Positions 230 through 17,852 of a stretch of DNA of 64,000 bases are shown here, in pieces. The position numbers and the translations under genes were made by a program. The DNA comes from an uncultured Lachnospiraceae bacterium (GTDB lineage Bacteria; Bacillota; Clostridia; Lachnospirales; Lachnospiraceae), in assembly GCA_902786515.1 (NCBI GenBank), contig CADADA010000004.1, forward strand, positions 1-64,000. The letters are read 5' to 3'. How positions within the stretch are numbered: position 1 is the stretch's first letter; every line of letters begins with the position of its first letter. Under the pieces are notes generated by a model. It was not told where the DNA came from. It did no database searches and saw nothing but the letters and a program-made list of their open reading frames with translations.

Positions 230-640
230 TTACAAGGCATAATCTCTAACAGCCTGTACAACACTACTAGAATTCCAGCCAACCATAACATCTGCATTGT
301 TACTAACCTTACTTGGTATTCTTTCTTGACCTCTAGGCTTCACTCCAATAATTGGTTTTCCTAATTCTACTGCTGTATCAATCTCGTAATCTATCCATTC
401 ACTATATGAAACATACATACCTGAAAGAATAATTACACAACTACATAATGATATTCTGTTGCGAAGTTTTTCCTTCAATTCTTTTTTCCCATTAACATCC
501 AAAGGCTTTGTAAGTGGTACCGAATAATCTGTCCAATCAAAATTTTTAGCATCATTAAGCCAACCTTTAATTGTCTGATAATCAGAACTGTAATCCCATG
601 AATGACTAATTAAAATATGATAATCTCTTAAACTTGGCAT
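230..640 (-). CDS. TIR-like (Thoeris ThsB-type, DUF1863) signalling protein
   Basis: This 136-residue protein is a single TIR-like domain of the Thoeris ThsB/DUF1863 kind. It opens with the family signature ISHSWDY at residues 11-17, followed by DYSVP at 38-42. The segment W82-x3-E86 (WIDYE) is where TIR NADases carry their catalytic glutamate. By family knowledge such proteins turn NAD+ into a cyclic ADP-ribose-type signal after phage infection. The start at 640 is chosen because AGGAGG lies seven bases upstream; the alternative ATG at 646 sits directly against that site. It is the last gene of the operon and starts 11 bases past the caspase-like gene, the presumed receiver of the signal. 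Domain identity is strong; the product made and the trigger sensed are inferred. Confidence 0.85.
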   Translation of the reverse strand: MPSLRDYHILISHSWDYSSDYQTIKGWLNDAKNFDWTDYSVPLTKPLDVNGKKELKEKLRNRISLCSCVIILSGMYVSYSEWIDYEIDTAVELGKPIIGVKPRGQERIPSKVSNNADVMVGWNSSSVVQAVRDYAL

Positions 641-651
641 ATTCATTCCTC

Positions 652-1626
652 CTATATTCTTCCTTCTTTTACTAATCTCCAATATTGTTTTCCTACAGCC
701 GTTAATTCACATGCTTTAGAATTCATTGCCGCATAATACATATGTTCTTCTCCAACGGGAACCACTAAGCCAACCCCTTCCAACTTCTGTAAATCTGAAA
801 ATACAGCAGTATTCTCATCCTTTGCATATGGCTCAATGACATTATGAACAACTTCACTTCTATTGGTAGGTTCATATGACGGGTTTAGTTCATATTGATA
901 ATCTTCACTTTTAAAGTAATTCACGATTTTCCTTAATACCGTCATATCAACCTGTGGCTGTACTTCTCTCAATGATGTAAATCTTGTCACATTTGTCTTG
1001 AATACAGGTCTCTGCTCCCATGGACCTAAAGCCTTATCTATAAATGCATAAACTCCTGCAATAGAAATATGTCCTGTCACATCTGCTGCACCACCATTGA
1101 GTGCTTCTATCAACAACGAAGTAAATACACCATGTCCATTTACTTCCATAGAAGTTTGACTATTTCTACTTGCTGTCATAATAGTAACTCCTTCATTAAT
1201 GTTCGCTGTATTTTGTCCATCAGTATTTATACTACCCATAAATCCAGAATAGCAACTATCAAGTATAATTATTCTCTCTTTACATTTTGACTTATTTGCA
1301 ATCGTCAGAATTTCTTGTAATGATACCCCATAGTCATTTTCTGAAAAATCTGGTGTAACTAAATATCCTCCAACTGCATCAATATGTCCATGCCCAGAAT
1401 AATAGAATAGTGCTACATCTGCATCACCTTCAAAACATTTCTCTATTAAGCCTCTCAACTCACCTTTTGTTGCAACATTGTCCTTTTTCCAAACGGAAAA
1501 GTTTGGGTCACCATTTCCATGATTACTTAATAAATCTTTTATTGCCTCTGAATCGTTACAGCAACCTCTAAGCGGACAGGTCGGATAATCATTAATTCCT
1601 ACAACTAATGCTTTTCTTTCACCCAT
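652..1626 (-). CDS. Caspase-like (peptidase C14) protease, probable TIR-activated effector
   Basis: This 324-residue protein has an N-terminal caspase/metacaspase domain (about residues 1-215). The predicted catalytic His79 lies in YYSGHGH and the predicted catalytic Cys125 in LDSCYSGF. The remaining 110 or so residues form a separate C-terminal domain without a motif I recognise; it is the natural candidate for a ligand sensor. In type IV Thoeris a TIR protein makes N7-cADPR, which activates a caspase-like protease that degrades cellular proteins. Gene order and domain types here fit that plan. The start at 1626 follows AAAGGATG, 16 bases after the upstream gene ends. The gene ends in TAG, which overlaps the TIR gene's ribosome binding site and suggests coupled expression. 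Protease identity is strong; the activation mechanism is inferred from family and context. Confidence 0.85.
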   Translation of the reverse strand: MGERKALVVGINDYPTCPLRGCCNDSEAIKDLLSNHGNGDPNFSVWKKDNVATKGELRGLIEKCFEGDADVALFYYSGHGHIDAVGGYLVTPDFSENDYGVSLQEILTIANKSKCKERIIILDSCYSGFMGSINTDGQNTANINEGVTIMTASRNSQTSMEVNGHGVFTSLLIEALNGGAADVTGHISIAGVYAFIDKALGPWEQRPVFKTNVTRFTSLREVQPQVDMTVLRKIVNYFKSEDYQYELNPSYEPTNRSEVVHNVIEPYAKDENTAVFSDLQKLEGVGLVVPVGEEHMYYAAMNSKACELTAVGKQYWRLVKEGRI

Positions 1627-1642
1627 ATCATCATCCTTTCTA

Positions 1643-2107
1643 TTAATGAATACATATCTCATCTGATAAGACAGTATCAAAATTATGTCTTACATTAGCA
1701 GATTCCCAACTGATTCTATCTTCAATGTATGTAAGCAATTCCGTTCCATCCAAATATATATACATCCGTGGTGCAACAAATCCCGGAACATCACGCCTTA
1801 AGTCATCAAGCGAAATAGCTGTAGTATCCTGAAATTCATCAATCTCCATAGCATATCGATATGATTCTTGATATTTTTCAATGCGAGCAATAGCATCCTT
1901 ATCCTCCTTAAATTCTTCTTTCCAATCGGATAAAAGATGTCTCTTGCCTAAGTACACAATTCCTGTAATTGCCTTAACAGGTGCACTGACATACATATAA
2001 GCCATAATAGGCTCGTCCGGAAAGTTTCTTCTATGTTCAAATTTTTTCTTCCCGGATTTAATCTTCTCATACACTTCCGGCTTAAAGCTTAAAAGCATCT
2101 TTCTCAT
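1643..2107 (-). CDS. ASCH (PUA-like) domain protein
   Basis: This 154-residue protein begins LLSFKPEVYEKIKSGKKKFE, and its SGKKKFEHRR matches the GxKxxExR-type signature of ASCH domains. It then continues with the usual strand VSAPVKAITGIVYLG. ASCH proteins are small beta-barrel folds related to PUA. Some bind RNA or modified bases, and one group (YqfB) hydrolyses N4-acetylcytidine. It lies between the methyltransferase-endonuclease and the caspase-like gene with gaps of 13 and 16 bases, so it is almost certainly cotranscribed. The start at 2107 is preferred over 2098 because AAGGCGGTGG lies five bases before it. Whether it reads modified phage DNA, regulates the cassette or has an RNA role cannot be told from sequence. 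Confidence 0.65.
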   Translation of the reverse strand: MRKMLLSFKPEVYEKIKSGKKKFEHRRNFPDEPIMAYMYVSAPVKAITGIVYLGKRHLLSDWKEEFKEDKDAIARIEKYQESYRYAMEIDEFQDTTAISLDDLRRDVPGFVAPRMYIYLDGTELLTYIEDRISWESANVRHNFDTVLSDEICIH

Positions 2108-2120
2108 TAATGCCACCGCC

Positions 2121-4139
2121 TTAATTCCATTTACATTCGATGTTAAGAACTTCCATTGGCATACTGATAAACTGAACATCAAACTTAAGACTTGGCTCAA
2201 CCTTTGTACTTGCATTGTGAATTCTAAAACTAAGCTGCCATCCGTTATCAAGATACATTTCTACAGTATTATCACTATCTGGTTTGAATTCAAGAGCAAC
2301 AAGTCTCGTAGGTAACTTAACAATAGGTACTGTAATTGCTGATAACTTATTCTTTGCTGGCTTATTCAAAGTATCATGCATATTAAATGTATGAATCATC
2401 GTAAGTCTCTTACTATCCTTGCTCACAACTTTATAATAATCTTCAATACCAATCAGATATTCAATCATTTTTCTTGGCATCGTGTTATCTTTCTCATTTG
2501 CTCGATTTATTTCATCAATGAATGCCTGCAATAAAGGAATATACACTTTCTGACCCTTATCCTCTATTTCAGACCATTTTGTACCATTCTCTTTTTCCTG
2601 TTTCAATATATTAAAGATTGGTTCTACAGCATCCCAATACTCATCAGAACATGGCATTTCAAACCACTCATTTCCAAAATCCAACTTATGGCTTAATCTG
2701 CTGTGCTTTACAGCATCGTGGTTATGTTTAATACTCAAGCCAACCTCCCATTCGATATCCTTTCTCTTGATAACGATGTCTCTAACATCACCTTTTACCC
2801 CCTGACCATCTTTTTGAAACTCAAGGGTAAGTTCATCATCATCAATTTCAGACATTCTTGGTTCAAGTTCTAACACTGTATCAATGGCAGCACCTGCTGA
2901 TATCATAAATGTCTCCTGTATTTCTTCATCCATAAGAGACCATGCTTTTTCATTTGCCATCAAACTAGAATTCTCAACAATTCTTGTTTTTCTTAACTCT
3001 GCCAATGCTTTATATAAAGTTTGAATCCAAGCATACTCGTATGCTCTTCCCTGATCATTACTCTTTGTACTCACTTTCTTCTCATTGACCTCCTTAGCAT
3101 CAATAACCTCTCTGTCGATTTCAACAGAAGAGCCTTTTCCTTCAAGATACATCTTTATTGCTACAGCTACCTCATATGCCAAATTCACAGGGACTGCATT
3201 ACCAATCATCTTATATGCAGTATTTGTATCATTGTAAATGAATTTAAAATCATCCGGGAACCCCTGTACTCTAGCAACTTCACGAATAGTCATTCTTCTA
3301 TAAAGGTGTTCTTTTCCTTCTACAAATCTACAATCATTAGTTCCAACCTTTACCATCTTAGGTGCCTGTGGGTGTAACTGACATTGACGTCCAGATGCTT
3401 GAACTGTAAACGCCTGCTCATCCCATCCCTTTACACGATTACGGCTCATAAAAATAGGTGAATAAGCACCTGTGAAATATTCATTATTATTTATTGCATC
3501 CGGATTATGGCGATTCTTTTCTCCAGAAGGTACAGCAGTTTCTTGCAAATCCCAAATAACATCACGCAATGTAATCTTCTTTGAATCATCTTTAGTAGAA
3601 CCTTTAGGAAAACCAAAGTCTATCTTTAAATCTTTTCTAAATCCTATGTAAAATACTCTCTTTCGCTCTTCTGCAACACCATAATCCTTGGCATTAACCA
3701 ATGTGAACGAAACATCATATCCTGCCTCATCAAATAATTCTAAAATATTTTGAACGGCAATAGAATGTCTATCCGCAAGCATTCCACTAACATTTTCCGC
3801 TAAAAAGAACTTTGGTTGAAATTCCTTTAATATTCTGATATAGTCAAAAAACAACTGACCTCTCGCATCCTTAATACCCTTAAGGGAGCCAGCTTCTGAC
3901 CATGACTGACATGGCGGTCCGCCAATGATTCCATCTACTTCTCCATCTATGTATTGAGCAATATCATCTTTTGTGACTTGCCTAATATCACCTTCAATTA
4001 AATGTGTATTAGGATGGTTAACTTTAAAAGTTTCCCATATGGTTTTGTCAAATTCATTCGCCACAGGAATATTAAATCCTGCTCTTTCAAAGCCTAAATC
4101 AAGTCCTCCACATCCACTAAACAAGCTAATTACATTCAT
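2121..4139 (-). CDS. Fused HaeIII-type C5-cytosine methyltransferase and restriction endonuclease
   Basis: This 672-residue protein joins two enzymes. Residues 1-335 are a DNA cytosine-C5 methyltransferase with the SAM site ([11 protein letters not shown]), the catalytic PPCQS motif (Cys77), the ENV motif (115-117) and a target-recognition region ([17 protein letters not shown]) very like M.HaeIII. Residues from about 355 on resemble the HaeIII family endonuclease: a start near QGRAYEYA, then a candidate PD-(D/E)xK-like core with GDVRDIV and [19 protein letters not shown]. Both halves therefore predict GGCC as target. The start at 4139 has AAGGAG nine bases upstream and lies 14 bases inside the preceding gene. 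Methyltransferase and nuclease of this family are usually separate genes, so the fusion is unusual. Enzyme families are confident; specificity is inferred by similarity. Confidence 0.88.
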
Positions 4140-4311
4140 CGGCTTTCGCTCCTTCATTCTCATTCTTTTTGATTATTTTCGCCGCCTCTATAAGTGCTGT
4201 CCTACGTACAAATTCACTATAAGAAGCATATGCCTCTAATCTTGCAGCCTGCTTGAATTTATCTAATTCTTCTTCGCTAACACGTATGCTTATTGATATT
4301 GATTTTTTCAT
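4126..4311 (-). CDS. Small ribbon-helix-helix DNA-binding protein
   Basis: This 61-residue protein begins [20 protein letters not shown] and continues with [11 protein letters not shown], the strand-helix-helix pattern of ribbon-helix-helix (Arc/MetJ/CopG-like) proteins. Proteins of this kind act as small repressors, antitoxins or relaxosome accessory factors. It is the first gene of the defence operon and overlaps the next gene by 14 bases. Its promoter carries a doubled TTGACA box, so autoregulation of the operon, in the manner of restriction-modification control proteins, is a reasonable guess. The start at 4311 is chosen for GGGAGGTG eight bases upstream; a longer in-frame extension to 4350 has no such site. 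The lysine- and glutamate-rich tail after residue 45 has no recognised role. Confidence 0.7.
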
Positions 4312-4484: not shown

Positions 4485-6047
4485 TTATGCCAGGATTTTT
4501 CTTTTCCTACATTTGTCTGGTATTTCTTCTGACCAGGGTACCAAAGTGCTCACATCCATGCCGGATATGATACTCTCGAATAAAAACTCTAGATATTTTT
4601 GTGGAATAAGTTCATTTGCTATCGCTGTTTGAATAATACTGTATATCAGTGTTGATGCATCAGCACCGTTAGGTGTATTTGAAAACAGCCAGTTAGATCT
4701 GCCGATAACAAATGATTTAATACTCTGCTCCGCAAGATTATTACTTAACTGTATTCTTCCGTCCAACAGAAAACTGCACAGATATTCTTTCTATTTCAAT
4801 GCATAGGCAATAGCCTTCCCCATCAAACTCTGGGGAAGGATTTCACTTTCTATATCTGATATCCAGTTGTAAAAACTATCTGTTACTGCTTTAGATTTTT
4901 CAGCCCGCAGCTCCAGCCTTTCTTCAAAAGAAAGCCCTTTTTTATCTGCTTCCTTTTCGATAGCAAACAGCTTTCTTATATATTCTTCCCACTGTCTGGC
5001 ATACTCGTTATCCCTGTTTGCCACATGAGCTTCATGGAATTTTCTCTTTGCATGGACAAGGCATCCGCATAAAGTAATTCCATCAAGTTTTTTATAACCC
5101 GCGTATCCATCACAATGAAGATATTTTCCCTGCCAGTTTTTCAGAAATGTCTGTGCATAAGCTCCATTTCTTCCGCTGGTATATTCATATACCATTACCG
5201 GATGCTTATTATATAATGATGTCCTGCATATCCAGACATATGATTTGGCGGTGGCAGGTCTTCCCGGTTCATTCAATACCTCAAGAACCGTCTCATCTGC
5301 ATGAAGCAATTCTTCCTTCATAAGATTTGATATCAGTTCATTGTACAGAGGTTTTAAAAGCTCTGCTCCTTTTATAATACAGTTGGAAAGGTTCTGTCTC
5401 GAAAGTTCTATTCCAAGTCTTTTAAATTCCTGTTCCTGCCTGTACAATGGCAGTGCAAGTGTATACTTCTGGTTCATTATATATGCCATAAGACTTGGTG
5501 ATACGAAACTTTTGGGTATTAAAGCTTTTGGATGTGGTGCTTTTTTGATATATCCCGCTTCTCCATTTTTGTCACAATTTCTACAGCTGTATAAATATGT
5601 GACATGTTCCACTACCTTTATTTCTGCCGGAATTACTACCAGTTCCTTTCGCACTTCTTTTTTCATGACGGTAAGTGTTTCACCACACACATCGCATATG
5701 AGTTCATCATCATCCAGTTTGTATTCCTTTACTTCAACAGGAAGGGATTCTAATTTTTTACCACGTTTTGATTTTTTTCTTTTATGCTCTGCAATTATTA
5801 TACTTTCATCAGGTTCTTTGGCAATCGGTTCTCTCAATGCTTCGGCTTCATTGAAAAGATCAAAAAGAGAAACCTGACCATCGCATGCTTTTTCAGATGA
5901 CCTGCCAAATTTCTCTTTTGCTCTCAACTTAAGCTGTTCCTCATACCAGCTGTTCAATTTCTGAAGAGACTGTATCGTCTCATTATTTTTCCTGATTACA
6001 GACTTTAAAGATTCAATCTCTGCCTTTAATTCCTCTACTGTATTCAC
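4485..6047 (-). pseudogene. tnpC: IS66 transposase tnpC, interrupted by an in-frame amber codon
   Basis: The first 418 codons hold an N-terminal coiled coil, a zinc-binding segment (CDVCG near 118-122, CRNC near 155-158) and two catalytic aspartates, Asp251 in LLHADETV and Asp313 in LHCDGYAGY. Codon 419 (4791-4793) is TAG, and the same frame then continues for about 100 codons to 4485. The downstream part contains SNNLAEQSIK, whose glutamate (codon 440) is the third acidic residue of the IS66 DDE triad. Truncation at the amber codon would therefore remove catalysis. The start is GTG with AAGGAGG nine bases upstream. TAG terminates ordinary genes nearby, so readthrough is unlikely to be the normal state. 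Confidence 0.88.
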
Positions 6048-6122
6048 CTTTAAAGTCCTCCTTCAATCACTGAATTTTTATGGTTCTATTATACCATAAA
6101 AACACTGTTAAATCCACAGTAT

Positions 6123-6473
6123 TTAATGTTTTTTCCATACTTCACTGCGTTTTATTTTCTGTGTTATACCAGGAGCCAGAAGTATATTTTTCAGCTCATC
6201 CATCGTAAGTTTCATTGTCTCATCAGTGGCATTGATTTCCGGCTAGATAACTCGCCCACGTTCAATTCTCTTGAAATGAATCCAGAATCCATTATCCTCC
6301 CACACCAGCCGTTTTATTCTGTCACGGCTTCTGTTACAGAATGCGAATATAATATTTTCACGCGGATCCAGTTTGAATTTTGAAGAAATAATTTCGGACA
6401 ATCCATTTATACTTTTTCTCATATCTGTGGCGCCACACGCAAGTATAATCCTATAATCCCTGTAATTAAACAT
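6123..6473 (-). pseudogene. tnpB: IS66 accessory protein tnpB, interrupted by an in-frame amber codon
   Basis: The reading frame encodes the IS66 Orf2 protein (start MFNYRDYRIILACGATDMRK), with the typical NRSRDRIKRLVWEDNGFW segment. At codon 77 a TAG (6243-6245) stands where homologues usually have tryptophan (RGRVxWPE). The frame then continues for 39 more codons to a TAA at 6123, giving the family's usual 116 or so residues. The start overlaps the end of tnpA by 8 bases, suggesting coupling. Its role in transposition is essential in related elements but biochemically undefined. Confidence 0.85.
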
Positions 6474-6789
6474 CCGTTGTTCTCACCGCCTTTAACACAT
6501 CCTTAAAAAAAGATATATCCGTAAGCTCTGTGATGGTGATTTTGAGCCCATCGTATTCAATCTGCACATTAGATTTACTGTTGATTTCATTTGTCATACC
6601 GCTAATTTCCATAAAGGAATAGTTTTCATTATTCGTTCTGCATTTTTTAGAATTGTGATGAAGCCAGTTATTCAGCGTCGAAGTAGGTATACCATGCTTC
6701 CGACACCAGCTATTCTTCGACATACCGCTTTCAACAAAATCAGCAACCAGATGTTCTTTTTCACTTTTTGTACGAAAAACTCTTTTCAA
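6466..6789 (-). CDS. tnpA: IS66 accessory protein tnpA
   Basis: This 107-residue protein has an N-terminal helix-turn-helix (about residues 10-45, with SGMSKNSWCRKHGIPTSTLN) like other IS66 Orf1 proteins that probably bind the element's ends. It is the only one of the three transposition genes that is intact. A TTG start at 6789 is preferred because AGGAGG lies eight bases upstream; the in-frame ATG at 6822 lies before that site and lacks one of its own. The gene lies just inside the right inverted repeat. Confidence 0.8.
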   Translation of the reverse strand: MKRVFRTKSEKEHLVADFVESGMSKNSWCRKHGIPTSTLNNWLHHNSKKCRTNNENYSFMEISGMTNEINSKSNVQIEYDGLKITITELTDISFFKDVLKAVRTTDV

Positions 6790-6841
6790 AAAATACACCT
6801 CCTTTTGAGATGCATTATACACGGTTTTATATCTGATTGTT

Positions 6842-7050: not shown

Positions 7051-7422
7051 TCAAATATCCCACAAATCAATTCTATTTGTTATAAAACTTATATGATCAC
7101 CATCATTTAAATCATGTGGTAACTTTGTTTCATCAATAGTAATTAAAAATCCATTCACTTTTATTAAGCCTTGGGTCTTTTTAATAATTTCACCAAATAT
7201 TAAATATTTAAAATTATCATCTAAGGCTTCTATTTTCTCTGTATTGTTATTATTTTTCTGAATATTTTCTTCACTTAATGAATTTAAACTATCACTTAAT
7301 TGATCATTATATTGATAATTACAACAATCACAAAATGCTCTAATGTCATTATTTCCATCAGAAACAATCACTATTGCTTCCTTTGACATCTCATCCATCC
7401 AAAAAATATTTTTAATATACAT
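7051..7422 (-). CDS. Probable immunity protein for the Rhs toxin
   Basis: I do not recognise the family of this 123-residue, acidic, cytoplasmic-looking protein, which has no signal peptide or membrane segment. It starts three bases after the stop of the giant Rhs gene and is the only gene between it and the terminator. That is the standard place for the immunity protein of a polymorphic toxin. Residues 30-65 are low-complexity (Asn-, Ser- and Glu-rich); the C-terminal part (about 70-123) looks compact and beta-rich. The ribosome binding site before 7422 is weak, so an internal ATG (MSKEAIVIV) is also possible. The role rests on position, not on homology. Confidence 0.6.
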   Translation of the reverse strand: MYIKNIFWMDEMSKEAIVIVSDGNNDIRAFCDCCNYQYNDQLSDSLNSLSEENIQKNNNNTEKIEALDDNFKYLIFGEIIKKTQGLIKVNGFLITIDETKLPHDLNDGDHISFITNRIDLWDI

Positions 7423-7425
7423 AAT

Positions 7426-10400
7426 TTATCTACCAAATCCTAAACTAGGAGCTTTTTTCATCAATTCACCAACACTTTTTATATGAAATGTGGTTATATC
7501 GCCTGTTTTCCTATCAAGACCGACAAAGCCAAAATTTTTTCCTTTAATAAATGAAACATATCCATTCAATTCAGGAACAAACGTGCCATTATTTATTATA
7601 TAATTTGCATCATCCAAATAATTAGCTTTACTATAATTATTTACTTCTAAATTTGCAATTATTTGATCTTTATGCTTGTCATAATGTTCATCAAATGCAT
7701 TCTCATCTTTAAAATTTTTACAATTATTATGCACAAGAACATTTCCTGCATAATACGTATGCAATCCATCTATCTCAAGGTTATATACTTCTATCCTCTC
7801 AGAAAGCTTTTCAACGATTACTTCTTCAACGAACAACTCTCTTTCATCAATCGAATGAAGTTTATCACCTTTTTCAAGATTTGATGCAGCTACCCATGCT
7901 TCGTCTTTGCCATTCTCAACAAAGAATGGATGATACATTGTAGTCTTAATCTCACTGCCATCAGAAAGTTTTACATGCACGAGTGTATCCGTTTTTGTAA
8001 CCGATACATCTTTTACCTTGCACGCTTCATTTTCACCAGTCTGAGTGTTGTAAGCGTATATTTCATCTCCGGCTTTAATGTCAGATATCTTTTTACTTCC
8101 ATCCGTTGTCTCTACCAATGTGTCTTTTGTAAAACACTGACAGCTAAATGTAAATATATCAACTGCAATTCTAAGTGTTGCAATTAAGATTTTTTCAGGA
8201 TCTTTGGCTTCTATTGCATCTACCAGTTCATCAACGTCGGATACAACTCCAAATATTTTTAGTAAATATGTTGCAGCTTCACCTACAATAGCTTTTGCAA
8301 AACAAGAAATCAATGCCTGGGTTACCATTCCCTTAGCTATAGCTAACGCTACATCCAATATACTTGCCTCGCCACATAGCACTGCTCTTATCTGAACACC
8401 TACATCATAAGCCGTTAATGCCATGTTAACCCATGACATTATTCTCTTAATATCAAGATAAGCTCTTGTCGCACTAAGTATATTATTAATTGACTGTGCA
8501 ACGCTACACTCTGCAAGCGAGAAATATCCCGATGGGTCAGTGTTCATTACAGGGTTTGCATTTGCATACAGGTATTTGTGTAAACTTACAGGATTATCAA
8601 GTGTTCCCGCATATGAATCCATAGAAATAAATGTTCCTGTCTGAGGATTCATATATCTTGCTCTCAGATAATAAAGTCCTGTGCTCTCGTTGTACTGTTC
8701 ACCTGTGTAAAGATAATCATTATCCGTATTTCCGGTCTTCTTAAGAAGATTACCGTAAGCATCATATGTGTATGTATCACATATTACTACACTGTTTTCA
8801 CTTGTATTTTGGACAAGTGCAGTTACAGAACCGTGAACATCCTGAATGTAGAGTTTCTTATTAACTGAAACTTCTCCGGCTTCATTTGTACCGACAATAT
8901 CAGTACTCAAAAGCTCTGTTCCACGTGTGTAATACTTACTTACATCCAGACACTCATCACCATCTGAATTATATACTTTTTTAAGTTCTAATGCAACCTG
9001 TGTCAGTTCATCGTATGTATCATTAAGATAATATACCTTTTCCTCTTCGCCTGTCTGCTTAGAAATTCTGTTTCCTTCATAGTCATATTCATAACTTTCT
9101 ATGGTTACATTGCTTCCTTCGCTTATTGTAGCTGTTAAAAGTTTGTTCTGTGAACTGTAAGTATAAGCTTTTGTTATACTTCCTGACTCTGAAATAAGGT
9201 TTCCGTTATCATCGTAAGAATACTCAACAGATTCGTCTTCTGCAGTTCTTGCTGATAATAACTGATTCAACTCATTATACGTGTATGATGTAGTTCCTTC
9301 TTTAATTTCATCTGCATAACCATCTACATCTCCGGCTATAACAGTATTCTTTGAAGTTCTGTTACTTACACTGTCATACTCATATTCATTTATTATACTT
9401 CCTGCAAATGCATTGAATTTTGATAAAACAACTTTACCATCTGCATCAGCTGTTATGACATCATCAAATGCAACATCTTCTTTTATACTGATTACTTCTT
9501 TTTCTAATCTTAGTAATTCATCGTACTTATACTGGTAACTGATAATTCTTGCATTAGCGTCATCTGCAGAATTTCTTACAACCTCTACAGTTTTTGTTCT
9601 TTCTCCTGCATCACCATATGAATAATCATAATACATAAGTACATTGCTGTCTTTATCTGTAACAGTCTGATTAATCACACGTGAGCATACATCATATCTG
9701 TATCTTACACTCAGACCGCCTTCGTGCTTAACTAATGTTCTGTTACCTATTGCATCATATTCGTAAAGAGTTGCAACACCATCATGAGCTACTACTCTTA
9801 CAACACGATCCATTAAGTCATAATCATAAGTTGTCCCAGCCACATCAACACCATTCACATTATGTGTTACGGATTTGATATCATCACTGCTTGTATAAGT
9901 ATATTTAGTTAATCCCAAATCATACGTTTTTTTAGATGACATTCTTCCAAAATCATCATATGTATATGCAATTTCACCGTGACTGTCATTTACTTTTGAT
10001 AATCTTCCAAAATCATCATATGTAAAATCTGTGTTACCATCGCTGCAACTGAATCTTGTAAGATATCCATTTTCATCATATACATAAGTATTCTGATTTC
10101 CTTTATAATCCTTGTATCCAACAACTTTACCATATGAATCATATGTATACTCAGCTGTTTTTCCTGCTGCATTAACTAATTTCGTTACTCTTCCGTCTGC
10201 ATCATATACATATTTTGTTTCATTACCTTTTGCATCAGTAACCTTAACAAGTTCATTTGTCTCATCGTATTCATACTTATAACTGTTACCGCATGCATCA
10301 ATTACCTCAGTAAGTAAATCGACACCATTATAGATATATGAAGTTTCATGGTTTTCCCTGTCAATCTTTTTAACTACCCTGTTTCTTGCATCATAAACCA

Positions 10401-13400
10401 GTTTCTCTTTGGTTCCGTCAGGATAGACAAGACCTGTCTGATTCCCATTTAAATCATATTCATACTCGAAAACATTGCCCAATGCATCTGTAAATTTAGT
10501 TAATAATGAACGTTCGTTATACTCAAATTTAGAGATATTTCCATATGCATCTTCTATCTTTGTGTTTCTATTCATACTGTCATATGAATACTTAATGACA
10601 CCGCCTTCAACATTTGTTACTGATATGATGTTTCCATTTGCATCGTATTTGTAATCTTCACTGCTTCCGTCAGCAAATGTTTTTTTGATAAGTCTGTTAA
10701 TCTTATCATATGTCATCGTAACTGTAACACCCATTCTGTCTCTGGCTGTTATATTGTTACCATTCTTATCGTATGTAAACTCTTCAAATGTTCCATCTGA
10801 ATATGTTATCTTTGTAAGATTTGACTGATTGTCATATTCATAATTTGTTCTGATTCCATCAGCCGTAATCTCTGCTGTTTTATTATTTCTGTAATCATAT
10901 TCATATGTTGTAACAACACCTGAATTGCTAATTTCGGAAATCACATTTCCGGCAACGTCATATACATATCTTGATGTATATTCTTCCTTATTTCCATTCT
11001 CATTTGTTCTTGCAACTGTAACTCCAACACATCTGCCGTTTTCATCATAATCATACTTAGTTGTGTTTCCGTTACCATCTTCCATAGAGGTAAGGTTTCC
11101 GTCTGCGTCATACTTAAGCTTATGTACAGTACCGATTTCATCTGCTACAGATGATAATTTACCATCCTTTTCATATGTAAAATCTGTTGAATTACCCAAT
11201 GAATCTTCTGCTTTAGTAAGATTTCCTTTACTGTCATAGTTCATTGAAGCCATATTCTTACCTGCAAATTTTATATCTGTTACAGTATTTAATTCATTAT
11301 AGGTTAACTCCTCTACCGTTCCGTCTGCTGTTGTAAGACTCTTAAGGTTATTATCAGAATCATATTTAAAATATGTTGTGTTACCATTTGCATCTGTTGA
11401 TGATAATTTATTATTATTTTTATCATATGTGTTTGTAGTAACATTTCCTAAAGCATCTACCGTCTTCAAAATATTTCCGTTATCATCATATGTATATACA
11501 GTAGGATTACCCATTCTGTCTCTGATAACTTCTGTCTTTGAATCAACATCATGCTCATATTCTGTTCTGTTTCCGTCTGCATCTATTGTTGCAACAAGTC
11601 TTCCTTCGTCATCATATTCATTTCTGGCTACAGCAATTCCGGAAGGATCAATAATATCAATGAGGTTGTGATTATTATCATACGTATATGTTACATTTCT
11701 TCCGGCCTTATCAATATTCATGATAAGATTATCATTTTCATCATATACATATGACATTGAATCTATCTCATTGCCATCTTTGTCTTTTTCAGTTGCTTTT
11801 GTAATTCTGCCATTCTTATCCCTTGTAAAATCTATACCCATTCCGTTAGAATGTTTAAATCCATTTTTAGAAACTGTAATGGTATTTCCATTAGTATCTA
11901 CTGCTTTTGTCAAACCATATTTCGGAGATATATATAGTTTTGTTCCATCTTCCTTTGTCAAAATATATGAATGATTTTCTGACATCTCAAGATTGTCAAA
12001 TAAAAGGAAGTTATTATATACCAATGCATAGTTTGAACCTTCGAGTTCCAGTTTTACCTTTTTGTTCGTTACACATACAAAATTTAGATTTACATCATAA
12101 ATTGGTACTAATGCTCTTCTTTGAGGAGAGAATGATACTTTAAATCTGTCACATGTACCATCACCATATGAAACCGTAATGTCATGGCTGTAGGTTTCAA
12201 CCATTTCATATTTTGTACTGAAGGCTATACCTGACTGAACCATTTCATATCCTGTAGCAATATCATGGCTCTCAGTAAGTTTCACACTGTTAAGTCCTAA
12301 TGTCCATCCTGTTCCAAAATCTTCTGATGCTTTATTTCTGCTATCATAATTTCTTGTTACAGAAAGTGGAATTCCCGCAACATTTGTATTTATGTCGGTA
12401 AATCCGATAGCCATGTTTCCGACCTTCCAATCACCGTTAACATTTACACATCTCTCTGTTCTAACAATATTACCACCATTATCAACAGCAGTTAAACGAA
12501 TAGAATAACTTCCGTTCATAAGCATTGTTTTATCTAATGTTGCAAGTGTAACATTTTCAATGTTATTATATCCTTTTGCAAGTTCAGTATAGTTTTCTGT
12601 TCCGTTTAACTTATATTCCAATACGTAATAAGCTAATCCTTCTTCATCTTTTACTGTTCCAACTATATCTGTCTTTATGCCTAAATCCGAATCCGGCTCA
12701 GGTGAAATAAGTTCGGCAACAGGTGCATTTTTATCACTCTTATCGTAATATCTTACACTCTTTTCTACCTTTTTGATTTCACCATCAATTTCTGCTGACA
12801 AAGTAACTGTCAAAAGTCCAGGCTCAGAATTATTAATATTAGCAATTCTTCCGTTTAGTGAAACCTCACCCTTATCACTTGTCACAGATACATTCTTAGC
12901 ATTTTTCGGAAATGTTATGTAACCATATACAACATTTCCGGCATCGGTTGCAGTAGTAGACAACGTGAGATTCAAGTCTCCATAATACTTATTATCTTCT
13001 TCAATATTACTGCCACCTCCACCATTGTTTTTCTTATCATCTATTGTTCCGTTTTTTGTAACAGTAACAATATAAGATGCTTTTGTCATATTGCCTGCTT
13101 CGTCTTCTGCCGTAACATATACAACATAATCTCCAGGCAATATTTCTCCGTAGGTATATGATGCAATATCAGAATCGATAATTGATGTATTACCTTTCTT
13201 AATTAAAACTTCATTTTCTACGACTCCATCATCATTTTTCTTACCGGTGATTACGTTATATTCTTTAAGATTATCGTCAGTAATCGAACCGCTAAGTGAA
13301 ATATGTAAACCTTTATCATCTGTAGACGCTTTAATGTTTCCTGCGATTACAGGAGGTGTAATGTCATCATTTCTTTTAACAACATTTTCTGAAGATCCTG

Positions 13401-16400
13401 CTTCATAAATAAATCCGCCTCTTGATATACATGAATTTTCTTCACTGTCCCAAGCGTAAAGTTCTAATATATACTCTCCGTCAGACAAATCAGAGGTACT
13501 TATACTTGCAATTTCTGAATGGTCAATTGCTTCTGTTCCGCTGACAAGCACAGTTTTTGAATCTTCATTATCTTTTCTGTACAGAGTAAGATTATATCCT
13601 TCTAATTTTTCATTATCACTGACAGAAGCCGTAATAACAACCTCATCATTTTCAGAATCTAAAGATATTGTCTCAATTGCACATTCCGGTGGTATCCTGT
13701 CTTTTACTTCTTTTCTGACAGTTATCACCATATAAACAGTTGATGAAAGACCAGCTTTATCTTTAGCTGTAATTGTGTATTTATAATATCCTTCTTCAAG
13801 CGAATCAACATTAATTGTATCAATTACATCTTCTATGACTTCTTCATTTGATGTCTTAACAACCTCAACATCTGATTCTTCGTTTGTTTCAACATTTAAC
13901 TTTGACTTTGTAATGGTATATGAATCCAAAGCTTTATTATCTTTGATAGTCCCAACTATATCCGTATCACCTGAAATAGAACCATCCTTAGGACTGTCTA
14001 TTATAATTTCAGGCGGAGTCTTGTCAGTATTATCAATAACTGTAACTTCTTCACTCTTACTTGATGCATTTCCTGAAAGGTCTGTAGCCGTTACTGTCAC
14101 ATTTAATTTACAAGCCTCATTTGCAGTTACAATAAATCTTCCATAATTGTTACTTACAACTTCATCGTTACATTTTATTACAAAATCACTTACTCCGTTA
14201 TCATCCTCAGCATATGCTTCTACTGAAAACTCTTCTCCAACTTCCAATAAAGTCTTACTTACAATAAGTGTTACCTCCGGAGCAGTATTATCTTCCGGCT
14301 TTACATATACCCTGGCATCGTTTGTATTAATTGTTCTCACACAAGGTCTTGAATATGCACCTTCTATATCCTTTGATACATATTTTACAATGTAGATTTT
14401 TCCCATTTCCACCTCTGACGGGAATCTTCCTTCTGTCCATCCGGTCTCGTTTAATTCTTTATAATAGAATTTTTCTTCTCTAATTCCTTTTTGAGAATCA
14501 GAAGGATGATCTGCATCACAAGAATCATATGCAACATTTACAATACATTTCTTTCCGTCTGTTGACTGCATAAGGTTAATACTCATATCTGCCACCGGTC
14601 TGTTGTGGGCAAGAATAAGTTTCTTATACTCGTCAGTATCGGCATACTTTATGTAATCCTTTAAATTCTCATTTCCATGTGTAGGGTCATCCGATACTAT
14701 ATGAGTTATCTTATATGCACCTGAATTCTCAAATAATGTTACAGGCTCATTAGTTACAAACTCATCACGGGTTCCGTTTCCTTCGTTAAATACTGATGAA
14801 TCATATTCATATTTCCACTCATCAGTTCCAACTTCATCATTCTCAGGATCCGAATATGTGTCAGAATATGAGACCGGCTCATCTGTTGTTATTGTATCAT
14901 ATATCTTGTAATCCTTTGAAAAAACATCATTTTTTATTCTTGATACAATCTGATTAACAGCTTTAACAACCGTTATATCATCCTCACCGTTTTCTTCATC
15001 TTCTGCTTTTTGTGTTAACTGAATATTTTCTCCAGATCCATCAATAACATTCAGAAGTCTGTTGTATGAATCAATTGACTTGTCATTACCTATACCAAAA
15101 AACATTACATCATTTGACATAAGTGCCGCCGCAACATCAGAAGTCTTTCCGTCCTCTGAAAGTTCCGGAATTACCTCACCACTTAAGTTAATCACATAAT
15201 GATTAGTACCCGGCAGCCATTCATGCTCATTAACAACATCACTAAGACTCTTTCCCGTTACAGTCTGCATTGTAATATTTTTAAAAGTAAAATACGACTG
15301 CTGACTACAACAATGACTTCCGTGACTGATAATCGGTCCGTATCCGTATGCATCTACTCCATCATCCGGAAGTACATACTCATTAACCAGCAATTCACCG
15401 TCATCATATACTGTTATAGTGTTTTTATCTACTATTATTCTAAAATGATGGTTTGCATAAAGATTCTTTATATTAAATGTCTTTAAACATTTACCGTATC
15501 TTTCAACATTACCGTATCTGGTTTCTCTGAAAACATCTAACTTAGTCCTGTTAATCTGAACAATCTTTAATCCCCTTTGAGTAACCAGCACGCAGTATCC
15601 CTGTAAATAGTTTTCTTCATCATTTACAACAGTATTAAAGAGGAATCCTCCACCTTCCATACTGTGCCAGTCGGTTTTATCTCTCTGAAGATCAAAATCA
15701 AATATTTTCTTATTCGCATTACTATCATCCACATAAAGAAAATCTTTCAGAGCATCATAGCTGTATCCAAGCATCTTTATGTCTTTTCCATCATAAATAA
15801 TATGCTTATCAATCGTCGGCAGATATACGTCCTTATAATTATAATGATCATACTCTTTCCATGCAAAAGTATCTGTTGCATTTAATGATGACGTCTCAAC
15901 AGTTGTAACTCTTGCATCAATTCCATTCTCTTTTAAAAATTCTTTAACCTTTGCACTTTCAGCAGCATAATCACTTAATTCATCACTTCCGGCGCTTCCT
16001 ATAGTGAATATTATATCCGCCATTTTGCTTTTCTCTATCTTCATTGCAGATGACGGTGCCTGATTTACTATTTCAAATTCTTTTTCTATCTGACCTTTTA
16101 AAAATACAGACTCATCTATCAATGATAAAATTGTATCATCAAATTTTTCCTGAATATCAAGTGTTATTTTATACTTACCAACATTTGATAATTCATACGT
16201 AAATGCCAGTTCATCAGAGATTTCATTTAATGCATCCAAATCGTAATCATGCGTATCAATGACTTCTGTTTCATCAAAGTTTCCATCATTATTTTCATCA
16301 TAATACAGTTTGTAATTCTTATATATTATATAATCTCCTAATTCTGATACAGAACCATCTGTAATCTTTATTTCAGCCTGTCCATCACTATTTCTTACAA

Positions 16401-17664
16401 ACTTATAATCATCTGCTGCTTCGCCTTCAACTGCAGTCATTTCAAATCCGGCAACAGGAGCCTCATCATCAACTATTGTAATAATTTCTTCTGCCGGAAA
16501 TTCATCATAACCATCAGTTACCATTGCATTTATTCTGTAGGTTCCGCTCTCTTTAAACAACAATTCTCTATGAGTATTGGTTGTCTTACTGTCATCAACC
16601 AGACACACCTCATCCATTGTTGCAATAACATTTCCGTCACTGTCTATCTTATTAATATCAAGAGTGGTTTCATCCATAAGCAGATACTCAGCCTCACCTT
16701 GTATATCAAGATCAATATCTATCTTACGATTTACCTTTTTGTTACCTGTAGCTATGACAGATACCGAATCAATCTGCGGAATATGTCTTCTTGGTACATA
16801 AGGACATACGTATCCCATATCATTCCAGCCTTTTACCTTTACACAGTTATTACCGGCTTTGTAATCACTGTACTTCATCATTACAGAATCGTTCCAGAGA
16901 TATTCATCATTACCTCTGAAAAATCTAAGTTCTGTAGCACCTTCATCTTCTTTTGTAACCACATATCTGAAAACTTGTGTTTCAGGCGAATCACTAAGTC
17001 TTATAGGCACTAATTTTTCTTTATCCGCTTCGCTGATTTTTATATCATTTCCATTGTTATCCTTTTTCGAATACTCTGTAAAATTAACATAAAAAACTGC
17101 ATTTCCTTTTTCCCAGTTAAATCCACCGTTTTCATCTGTAAATTCATAGAAATCGAGATAAACAACATCTCCTTCTTTGAAATAATCATACGTTACACTG
17201 GGTTTACCGTCCCAATAACCATGTTCAGGCACTGTCGCATGGTATGTGCTCTTCCATGTGGAATAATCGTTTCTGTTACTTCCTCTTCCACCTGCACTCC
17301 ACGAATTCCACTGTTTCTTTTTATCAGGGCTTAATCTGTTAAAAGTAAAATTATAAGCCTTTGCTCTGATTCTAAGACTCCATGTCCTTGAATCTTCCTT
17401 TTTCATAGTGTAATAATCATGTCCGTTAGTATTATCCACAGCCTGAATAACCGCATTATTATTACCAATCCATCCACTATCTGTATCATCTCTGAAATAG
17501 ATAGTTGTAAATGCATCCGGAACTTCTGACGCATATGCCGTCTCCTCCGGGAAACTAAAACTAATACTTGTAACAAACATTACAAATGCCAGGATAACAC
17601 TTATAGGTCTCCTGACTTTTTTTGACATAAAAAAAGAGAATACTTTCCCAATTCTTGTGTTCAT
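7426..17664 (-). CDS. Giant secreted Rhs/YD-repeat polymorphic toxin with HINT domain
   Basis: The 3412-residue protein begins with a long Sec signal (basic MSKKVRRP, a hydrophobic stretch, then a probable cut near AYASE). A CBM26-like starch-binding-type module follows (residues 50-150), then tandem Ig/cadherin-like modules to about 1750. Two of these have PPEIIIDSPKDG and PVAELISPEPDS motifs. Residues 1750-3010 are tens of YD repeats closing with the Rhs core (LYYLRARYMNPQTGTFISMD). Next come hydrophobic helices (3030-3170), a HINT domain (about 3177-3315, from CFTKDTLVE to VLVHNNC) and a 97-residue toxin tail. The YD shell normally encloses the toxin and the HINT domain is thought to release it. 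The start at 17664 has AAAGGAG eight bases upstream. This resembles WapA-type contact toxins of Gram-positive bacteria. Confidence 0.85.
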   Translation of the reverse strand: MNTRIGKVFSFFMSKKVRRPISVILAFVMFVTSISFSFPEETAYASEVPDAFTTIYFRDDTDSGWIGNNNAVIQAVDNTNGHDYYTMKKEDSRTWSLRIRAKAYNFTFNRLSPDKKKQWNSWSAGGRGSNRNDYSTWKSTYHATVPEHGYWDGKPSVTYDYFKEGDVVYLDFYEFTDENGGFNWEKGNAVFYVNFTEYSKKDNNGNDIKISEADKEKLVPIRLSDSPETQVFRYVVTKEDEGATELRFFRGNDEYLWNDSVMMKYSDYKAGNNCVKVKGWNDMGYVCPYVPRRHIPQIDSVSVIATGNKKVNRKIDIDLDIQGEAEYLLMDETTLDINKIDSDGNVIATMDEVCLVDDSKTTNTHRELLFKESGTYRINAMVTDGYDEFPAEEIITIVDDEAPVAGFEMTAVEGEAADDYKFVRNSDGQAEIKITDGSVSELGDYIIYKNYKLYYDENNDGNFDETEVIDTHDYDLDALNEISDELAFTYELSNVGKYKITLDIQEKFDDTILSLIDESVFLKGQIEKEFEIVNQAPSSAMKIEKSKMADIIFTIGSAGSDELSDYAAESAKVKEFLKENGIDARVTTVETSSLNATDTFAWKEYDHYNYKDVYLPTIDKHIIYDGKDIKMLGYSYDALKDFLYVDDSNANKKIFDFDLQRDKTDWHSMEGGGFLFNTVVNDEENYLQGYCVLVTQRGLKIVQINRTKLDVFRETRYGNVERYGKCLKTFNIKNLYANHHFRIIVDKNTITVYDDGELLVNEYVLPDDGVDAYGYGPIISHGSHCCSQQSYFTFKNITMQTVTGKSLSDVVNEHEWLPGTNHYVINLSGEVIPELSEDGKTSDVAAALMSNDVMFFGIGNDKSIDSYNRLLNVIDGSGENIQLTQKAEDEENGEDDITVVKAVNQIVSRIKNDVFSKDYKIYDTITTDEPVSYSDTYSDPENDEVGTDEWKYEYDSSVFNEGNGTRDEFVTNEPVTLFENSGAYKITHIVSDDPTHGNENLKDYIKYADTDEYKKLILAHNRPVADMSINLMQSTDGKKCIVNVAYDSCDADHPSDSQKGIREEKFYYKELNETGWTEGRFPSEVEMGKIYIVKYVSKDIEGAYSRPCVRTINTNDARVYVKPEDNTAPEVTLIVSKTLLEVGEEFSVEAYAEDDNGVSDFVIKCNDEVVSNNYGRFIVTANEACKLNVTVTATDLSGNASSKSEEVTVIDNTDKTPPEIIIDSPKDGSISGDTDIVGTIKDNKALDSYTITKSKLNVETNEESDVEVVKTSNEEVIEDVIDTINVDSLEEGYYKYTITAKDKAGLSSTVYMVITVRKEVKDRIPPECAIETISLDSENDEVVITASVSDNEKLEGYNLTLYRKDNEDSKTVLVSGTEAIDHSEIASISTSDLSDGEYILELYAWDSEENSCISRGGFIYEAGSSENVVKRNDDITPPVIAGNIKASTDDKGLHISLSGSITDDNLKEYNVITGKKNDDGVVENEVLIKKGNTSIIDSDIASYTYGEILPGDYVVYVTAEDEAGNMTKASYIVTVTKNGTIDDKKNNGGGGSNIEEDNKYYGDLNLTLSTTATDAGNVVYGYITFPKNAKNVSVTSDKGEVSLNGRIANINNSEPGLLTVTLSAEIDGEIKKVEKSVRYYDKSDKNAPVAELISPEPDSDLGIKTDIVGTVKDEEGLAYYVLEYKLNGTENYTELAKGYNNIENVTLATLDKTMLMNGSYSIRLTAVDNGGNIVRTERCVNVNGDWKVGNMAIGFTDINTNVAGIPLSVTRNYDSRNKASEDFGTGWTLGLNSVKLTESHDIATGYEMVQSGIAFSTKYEMVETYSHDITVSYGDGTCDRFKVSFSPQRRALVPIYDVNLNFVCVTNKKVKLELEGSNYALVYNNFLLFDNLEMSENHSYILTKEDGTKLYISPKYGLTKAVDTNGNTITVSKNGFKHSNGMGIDFTRDKNGRITKATEKDKDGNEIDSMSYVYDENDNLIMNIDKAGRNVTYTYDNNHNLIDIIDPSGIAVARNEYDDEGRLVATIDADGNRTEYEHDVDSKTEVIRDRMGNPTVYTYDDNGNILKTVDALGNVTTNTYDKNNNKLSSTDANGNTTYFKYDSDNNLKSLTTADGTVEELTYNELNTVTDIKFAGKNMASMNYDSKGNLTKAEDSLGNSTDFTYEKDGKLSSVADEIGTVHKLKYDADGNLTSMEDGNGNTTKYDYDENGRCVGVTVARTNENGNKEEYTSRYVYDVAGNVISEISNSGVVTTYEYDYRNNKTAEITADGIRTNYEYDNQSNLTKITYSDGTFEEFTYDKNGNNITARDRMGVTVTMTYDKINRLIKKTFADGSSEDYKYDANGNIISVTNVEGGVIKYSYDSMNRNTKIEDAYGNISKFEYNERSLLTKFTDALGNVFEYEYDLNGNQTGLVYPDGTKEKLVYDARNRVVKKIDRENHETSYIYNGVDLLTEVIDACGNSYKYEYDETNELVKVTDAKGNETKYVYDADGRVTKLVNAAGKTAEYTYDSYGKVVGYKDYKGNQNTYVYDENGYLTRFSCSDGNTDFTYDDFGRLSKVNDSHGEIAYTYDDFGRMSSKKTYDLGLTKYTYTSSDDIKSVTHNVNGVDVAGTTYDYDLMDRVVRVVAHDGVATLYEYDAIGNRTLVKHEGGLSVRYRYDVCSRVINQTVTDKDSNVLMYYDYSYGDAGERTKTVEVVRNSADDANARIISYQYKYDELLRLEKEVISIKEDVAFDDVITADADGKVVLSKFNAFAGSIINEYEYDSVSNRTSKNTVIAGDVDGYADEIKEGTTSYTYNELNQLLSARTAEDESVEYSYDDNGNLISESGSITKAYTYSSQNKLLTATISEGSNVTIESYEYDYEGNRISKQTGEEEKVYYLNDTYDELTQVALELKKVYNSDGDECLDVSKYYTRGTELLSTDIVGTNEAGEVSVNKKLYIQDVHGSVTALVQNTSENSVVICDTYTYDAYGNLLKKTGNTDNDYLYTGEQYNESTGLYYLRARYMNPQTGTFISMDSYAGTLDNPVSLHKYLYANANPVMNTDPSGYFSLAECSVAQSINNILSATRAYLDIKRIMSWVNMALTAYDVGVQIRAVLCGEASILDVALAIAKGMVTQALISCFAKAIVGEAATYLLKIFGVVSDVDELVDAIEAKDPEKILIATLRIAVDIFTFSCQCFTKDTLVETTDGSKKISDIKAGDEIYAYNTQTGENEACKVKDVSVTKTDTLVHVKLSDGSEIKTTMYHPFFVENGKDEAWVAASNLEKGDKLHSIDERELFVEEVIVEKLSERIEVYNLEIDGLHTYYAGNVLVHNNCKNFKDENAFDEHYDKHKDQIIANLEVNNYSKANYLDDANYIINNGTFVPELNGYVSFIKGKNFGFVGLDRKTGDITTFHIKSVGELMKKAPSLGFGR

Positions 17665-17852
17665 TTTTCTTTCTCCTTTAAAAATATTCTTCAGGGACAA
17701 ATCACAAGACTTACTTCTAAGTACACTCTATAATAAACTTTTTAATTGTCACATAAAAATTATATCTTAATAAATAATTATACGGCTCAATATAATACTA
17801 TTAAAATAACCTTTATATCCAATATGATAATGTCAAATCAGAGGATATACCT

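What the first reader, a model, noticed from the sequence alone, without database searches (positions are those of the whole stretch)
7051..8136. Rhs HINT domain with an unassigned 97-residue toxin and a new-looking immunity protein
The tail after VLVHNNC (FDEHYDKHKDQI, LDDANYIIN, FGFVGLDRKTGDITTFHI) has the His/Lys and Thr-Phe pattern of BECR-fold RNases (Barnase-EndoU-ColicinE5/D-RelE). The adjacent 123-residue gene matches no immunity family I know.
Basis: partly seen in the sequence, partly recalled or inferred. Interest (0 to 1): 0.6.

Follow-up and report, generated by a model that had tools for sequence, protein, structure and literature searches.

The report
BECR RNase toxin with new immunity
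The tail of a giant secreted Rhs protein is very probably an RNA-cutting weapon against rival bacteria, and the small gene right behind it very probably makes the antidote; the same pair turns up behind many different delivery proteins, but neither half is in the protein-family libraries searched, so this is a new family of a well-known kind of weapon.

Summary
The 3,424-aa Rhs/HINT protein (7426-17700, -) ends in a 97-aa tail (7429-7719), and a 123-aa ORF (7051-7422) starts 3 bp after its stop. Neither has a significant match in Pfam, NCBIfam or PADLOC.

The pair is a genuine polymorphic toxin-immunity module. Homologous tails occur in Bacillota, Bacteroidota, Deinococcota, Spirochaetota and Pseudomonadota behind different carriers (Rhs+HINT, Rhs without HINT, LXG, WXG100, PT-TG). 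In 11 of 12 intact cases the gene directly downstream is a homologue of the 123-aa protein.

AlphaFold2 (pLDDT 88.8, pTM 0.79) gives two helices plus a four-stranded meander. The best solved-structure matches are BECR-fold CDI toxins (8ey4 Z 7.2, 7m5f Z 5.8, 5i4q Z 5.2), then RelE/HigB/BrnT toxins. An intermediate domain links the family to 8ey4 by sequence (hhalign 97%, then phmmer E 4.5e-7). H12, H16, Y34, Y54, T77 and H79 are invariant in 12 sequences.

Catalysis, substrate (tRNA most likely), toxicity and rescue are inferred, not shown. New member of a known kind, of moderate interest.

The parts
7429..7719 (-). 97-aa C-terminal toxin domain, predicted BECR-fold endoribonuclease
   Evidence: ORF; relatives; fold; structural matches; invariant residues
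7051..7422 (-). 123-aa immunity protein gene, ATG 3 bp after the toxin stop codon
   Evidence: ORF; homologue directly downstream of the toxin in 11 of 12 intact loci; alignment
7726..8118 (-). PT-HINT pretoxin autoprocessing domain ending in VHN-NC
   Evidence: PF07591
7426..17700 (-). 3,424-aa Rhs carrier protein with signal-like N terminus, RHS repeats, HINT and toxin tail
   Evidence: RHS_repeat E 6e-98

Best explanation
The 97-aa tail is the toxin domain of a secreted Rhs polymorphic toxin. [quoted passage not shown] Likely active site: H12 and H16 one helical turn apart on the first helix, T77 and H79 on the fourth strand, with Y34, Y54 and E50 nearby, giving transesterification to a 2',3'-cyclic phosphate, probably without metal. 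The 123-aa protein encoded 3 bp downstream is the cognate immunity protein, which protects the producer by binding the toxin. Shown: the module, its co-inheritance and its conserved residues. Predicted: the fold. Inferred: RNase activity, tRNA as substrate, HINT release, binding mode.
For: The same tail sits behind unrelated carriers in five phyla. In 11 of 12 intact loci a homologue of the 123-aa gene lies directly downstream. AlphaFold2 gives helix-helix plus four-stranded meander at pLDDT 88.8, the published definition of the BECR fold (PMC3482391). Best structural matches are BECR CDI toxins. Sequence bridge: family profile to a domain in genome G060 (E 4.6e-5; hhalign 97.2%), that domain to 8ey4 (E 4.5e-7). 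Invariant H12, H16, Y34, Y54, T77, H79. Characterised BECR CdiA-CT toxins are tRNases except one rRNase (PMC9086364).
Against: Foldseek alone gives no significant match, and a VIA-align Z of 7.2 lies in the range common for unrelated matches. No direct sequence match of the window tail itself to any solved structure. Aquimarina lacks the immunity homologue. The fused model does not fix the relative placement of toxin and immunity protein (pTM 0.59). No biochemical data.
Confidence: 0.83

Rival explanations
1. The toxin has the BECR fold but does not cleave tRNA: it cuts rRNA or mRNA, or, like ParE, acts on another target.
For: BECR toxins include an rRNase CdiA-CT, ribosome-dependent mRNA endonucleases (RelE) and gyrase inhibitors (ParE) (PMC9086364); RelE, HigB and ParE toxins are among the structural matches.
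Against: The top matches and the only sequence bridge are CDI toxins, whose characterised BECR members are nearly all tRNases. Invariant histidines fit an RNase better than a ParE-like non-nuclease.
Confidence: 0.25
2. The 123-aa downstream gene is not the immunity protein but an accessory protein such as a chaperone or export partner.
For: No binding or rescue data exist, and the fused model shows no confident interface.
Against: It is the one constant downstream neighbour across carriers and phyla, it diverges faster than the toxin (14-38% against 31-68% identity to the window protein), and it persists as an orphan in an Rhs locus. All three are usual signs of an immunity gene.
Confidence: 0.07
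3. The tail is a degenerate, non-functional remnant of a toxin cassette.
For: Two relatives are visibly broken (L010, L011), and an IS66 element lies close downstream of the immunity gene.
Against: The window copy is a full-length open frame with every invariant residue present, and its immunity gene is intact.
Confidence: 0.05

Closest known systems
CDI toxin of E. coli O32:H37 (PDB 8ey4) with its immunity protein
   Same: Top structural match (Z 7.2, rmsd 3.1 A, 78 aligned of 88); reached by sequence through an intermediate domain; shares the helix-1 histidines, the helix-2 tyrosine and the strand-4 threonine by alignment
   Different: 17% identity; carrier is a PT-VENN CdiA-type protein, not Rhs/HINT; H79 is not shared; relation of the immunity proteins not tested
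CdiA-CT of Serratia marcescens BWH57 (PDB 7m5f) and of E. coli NC101 (PDB 5i4q)
   Same: BECR fold; second and third structural matches (Z 5.8 and 5.2)
   Different: No sequence match found; BWH57 active-site candidates H47, E51, H52, R89 (PMC8616854) are a different set
YxiD-YxxD of Bacillus subtilis (Ntox50, BECR tRNase)
   Same: Gram-positive polymorphic BECR toxin with an adjacent small immunity protein (PMC12700104)
   Different: No Ntox50 match for our tail; the immunity profile finds no solved relative; YxiD is reported metal-dependent
Colicin D
   Same: Same general BECR layout by published description: His/Lys in the helical part, S/T in strand 4 (PMC3482391)
   Different: No Pfam match for the tail; profile comparison with a colicin D-like domain gives probability 0.1%

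Membership tests
Polymorphic toxin system (Rhs/HINT type) | Variable C-terminal toxin after a conserved carrier and a pretoxin processing domain | tested here: met
   RHS repeats and PT-HINT before the tail; the same tail behind other carriers
Polymorphic toxin system (Rhs/HINT type) | Cognate immunity gene directly downstream | tested here: met
   Homologous gene directly downstream in 11 of 12 intact loci
Polymorphic toxin system (Rhs/HINT type) | Toxicity of the tail and rescue by the immunity protein | not testable with these tools
   Needs expression experiments
BECR-fold RNases | N-terminal helical segment followed by a four-stranded meander | tested here: met
   Predicted structure, pLDDT 88.8: H6-24, H31-44, E46-48, E53-59, E62-68, E75-82; a prediction, not a solved structure
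BECR-fold RNases | Conserved S/T in the fourth strand | tested here: met
   T77 invariant in 12 sequences, in strand 75-82
BECR-fold RNases | RNase activity | not testable with these tools
   Needs purified protein
Pfam Ntox and Colicin_D families | Match to the family's profile above its cut-off | tested here: not met
   hmmscan of the tail and seven relatives against all Pfam: none above cut-off; colicin D also by hhalign, 0.1%. Ntox35 by profile-profile could not be tested
8ey4-type CDI toxins | Sequence homology to 8ey4 | tested here: inconclusive
   Only through an intermediate plus structure; direct phmmer of the window tail does not list it, and relatives reach only E 0.07
Known immunity protein families | Match to a Pfam, NCBIfam or PADLOC model | tested here: not met
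   Window protein: no significant match; four divergent family members: no Pfam match above cut-off
OB/TOBE (MOP)-like fold for the immunity protein | Structural match to OB/MOP domains | tested here: inconclusive
   ModG Z 6.3, rmsd 4.8 A over 110 residues, on the fused model

The most novel reading that the evidence does not exclude
The pair founds an undescribed, widely transferred toxin-immunity family: a BECR RNase subclade that uses H12/H16 on helix 1 together with T77 and an added H79 on strand 4, neutralised by a new all-beta immunity family with an OB/TOBE (molybdate-binding MOP)-like fold.
Probability: 0.45. Interest if true: 0.45.

Novelty: new member of a known kind. Interest (0 to 1): 0.36.

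Why it matters
It turns an unannotated Rhs tail into a testable RNase toxin with named candidate catalytic residues, and gives profiles for a toxin and an immunity family seen in five phyla and behind LXG, WXG100, PT-TG and Rhs carriers. These would help annotate tails and downstream 'hypothetical proteins' of LXG and Rhs operons, including Listeria, Bacillus and Proteus loci. It also joins Gram-positive LXG and Rhs toxins to a solved CDI toxin by sequence, not by fold alone.

Tried and rejected
Three weak same-family genome hits (L002-L004) are chance matches in unrelated genes. Foldseek gave no significant match for the fused or the single model, so the fold claim rests on the predicted layout, VIA-align and the sequence bridge. 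Colicin D was tested by profile comparison and rejected. Ntox35 members could not be fetched for a profile-profile test. The fused chain (toxin, stop codon read as Gly, Ile, immunity protein) was folded to look for a complex: both halves are confident, but pTM is 0.59 and no coordinates are available, so no interface claim is made. Relation of the immunity protein to YxxD was considered, but the immunity profile finds no solved relative. PHROGs gave only weak unnamed matches (best E 0.003).

Full report
WHAT IS THERE. On the minus strand, ORF 7426-17700 encodes a 3,424-aa protein with an N-terminal hydrophobic, signal-like stretch, RHS repeats (E 6e-98) and a PT-HINT domain at 7726-8118. After the HINT terminal motif VLVHN-NC come exactly 97 residues and a stop codon. 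Three bases later the ATG of a 123-aa ORF begins (7422 down to 7051).

NO LIBRARY KNOWS EITHER PART. The tail and the 123-aa protein have no significant match in Pfam, NCBIfam or PADLOC, nor do relatives of the tail above any cut-off. PHROGs gave only weak unnamed matches. Neither finds a significant solved structure by sequence.

RELATIVES. A scan of one genome per species found full-length tails at 51-68% identity in Velocimicrobium, another Lachnospiraceae bacterium, a Syntrophomonadaceae MAG, an Oscillospiraceae MAG and Aquimarina (Bacteroidota), and partial ones in a Roseburia MAG and a Treponemataceae MAG. A Deinococcus plasmid, a genome of the same phylum (E 5e-19; L014) and an unverified 'Listeria phage' contig (alone E 0.5, but E 8e-31 to L014) extend it. 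By way of L014 come a Bacillus paramobilis plasmid, Listeria monocytogenes, L. innocua and Proteus mirabilis. Within 397 genomes of the window's own family only the window's genome has it (three weak hits there were chance). Such a patchy spread across phyla fits horizontal transfer of a cassette.

DIFFERENT CARRIERS, SAME PAIR. The tail sits behind Rhs+HINT (window), PT-HINT (Velocimicrobium), Rhs with DUF6531 and no HINT, Rhs with FG-GAP (Aquimarina), a carrier with a weak phage-hub match, LXG (Listeria contig) and PT-TG (L014/L015) (all), WXG100 (Bacillus plasmid), an annotated LXG protein (L. monocytogenes) and an Rhs core (Proteus). In 11 of 12 intact loci the gene directly downstream belongs to one family with the 123-aa protein. 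With a profile built only from six close relatives, the distant ones are still found at E 1.1e-9 (Deinococcus), 5.8e-5 (Listeria contig) and 1.2e-3 (L015) among 872 translated segments, and at 3.6e-7 (L. monocytogenes), 3.1e-5 (Bacillus plasmid) and 2.8e-3 (Proteus) among 152, each time right behind the toxin. Only Aquimarina lacks it; a lipoprotein-like ORF follows there. Two loci keep an immunity gene next to a broken tail: L010, where the immunity gene itself is shortened, and L011. One genome of the same family has the immunity gene as an orphan near Rhs repeats. The immunity family diverges faster than the toxin.

FOLD OF THE TOXIN. AlphaFold2 on seven unaltered sequences gives pLDDT 88.8, pTM 0.79: helix 6-24, helix 31-44, strands 46-48, 53-59, 62-68, 75-82, helix 83-89. 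The BECR fold is defined as an N-terminal helical segment followed by a four-stranded meander, in many members with a conserved S/T in the fourth strand (PMC3482391). VIA-align puts CDI toxins on top: 8ey4 (E. coli O32:H37) Z 7.2, rmsd 3.1 A over 78 residues; 7m5f (Serratia BWH57) 5.8; 5i4q (E. coli NC101) 5.2; then mostly HigB, BrnT, ParE, RelE, YafQ and YoeB. These Z values alone could be background, and Foldseek alone finds nothing significant, so I looked for an independent link. The family profile finds a domain in another genome of the same family (G060) at E 4.6e-5; hhalign of the profile with that domain gives 97.2%, E 3.8e-11, against 0.1% for a colicin D-like sequence compared with an earlier nine-sequence profile. 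That domain matches 8ey4 at E 4.5e-7 over nearly its whole length. Sequence and structure thus point to the same solved toxin.

ACTIVE SITE (INFERRED). Twelve diverse sequences share H12, H16, Y34, I42, G45, Y54, V66, G67, I75, T77 and H79; E50 and T76 are nearly invariant. H12 and H16 are one turn apart on helix 1; T77 and H79 should lie on one face of strand 4. The helix histidines, the helix-2 tyrosine and the strand-4 threonine are shared with the bridging domain and, by alignment, with 8ey4, but H79 is not. This suggests a His-dependent RNase, probably metal-independent. I place the target as tRNA because all characterised BECR CdiA-CT proteins but one are tRNases (PMC9086364), and a Gram-positive BECR toxin, YxiD, is a tRNase (PMC12700104). 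YxiD was reported metal-dependent, so metal independence here is unproven.

IMMUNITY PROTEIN. In the fused model (mean pLDDT 85.7) the 123-aa half is nearly all beta. Its best structural matches are molybdate-binding MOP/OB domains (ModG Z 6.3, rmsd 4.8 A over 110 residues), which is weak. Relative placement of the two halves is uncertain (pTM 0.59), so no interface is claimed.

VERDICT. It is a new family inside a large known class, not a new kind of system. Not shown: toxicity, RNase activity, substrate, rescue, HINT cleavage.

Noticed in passing
window 230-1680 (-): A ThsB-like TIR protein (PF08937, E 8e-18) overlaps a caspase-like peptidase gene (PF00656, E 1e-19): a TIR plus caspase pair resembling what I recall as type IV Thoeris, a lead from memory only.
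   Followed up: partly
window 2121-4163 (-): One 680-aa ORF fuses a C5-cytosine methylase (PF00145, E 4e-100) with a HaeIII-type restriction endonuclease (PF09556, E 9e-139).
   Followed up: partly
window 1643-2251 (-): A 202-aa protein overlapping both neighbours, between the restriction-modification and caspase genes, has no Pfam match but matches PADLOC candidate PDC-M11B (E 5e-12).
   Followed up: no
window 4485-6822 (-): An IS66-type element lies between the defence genes and the immunity gene; its transposase frame is split into two ORFs (4791-6047 and 4485-4766).
   Followed up: no
L021 1-3342 (own genome contig C100): Two further Rhs/HINT ends with different tails and small downstream genes lie in tandem, probably displaced toxin cassettes of the same kind of Rhs carrier.
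   Followed up: partly
L005 4431-6877: In Velocimicrobium a second, nearly identical HINT start follows the toxin-immunity pair about 2 kb on, an array of displaced cassettes.
   Followed up: no
L032 1505-2296: In G060 the bridging 'HFEKHG' BECR-like domain follows a zinc-ribbon-like domain (zf_Tbcl, E 2e-10) and a hydrophobic segment, between genes that look like ABC transporter parts; not an obvious polymorphic toxin.
   Followed up: no
L013 / OR846728.1: The record named 'Listeria phage LM 4-11-1' carries an LXG toxin with this tail, like the LXG gene of a L. monocytogenes record; the contig may be bacterial DNA mislabelled as phage.
   Followed up: partly
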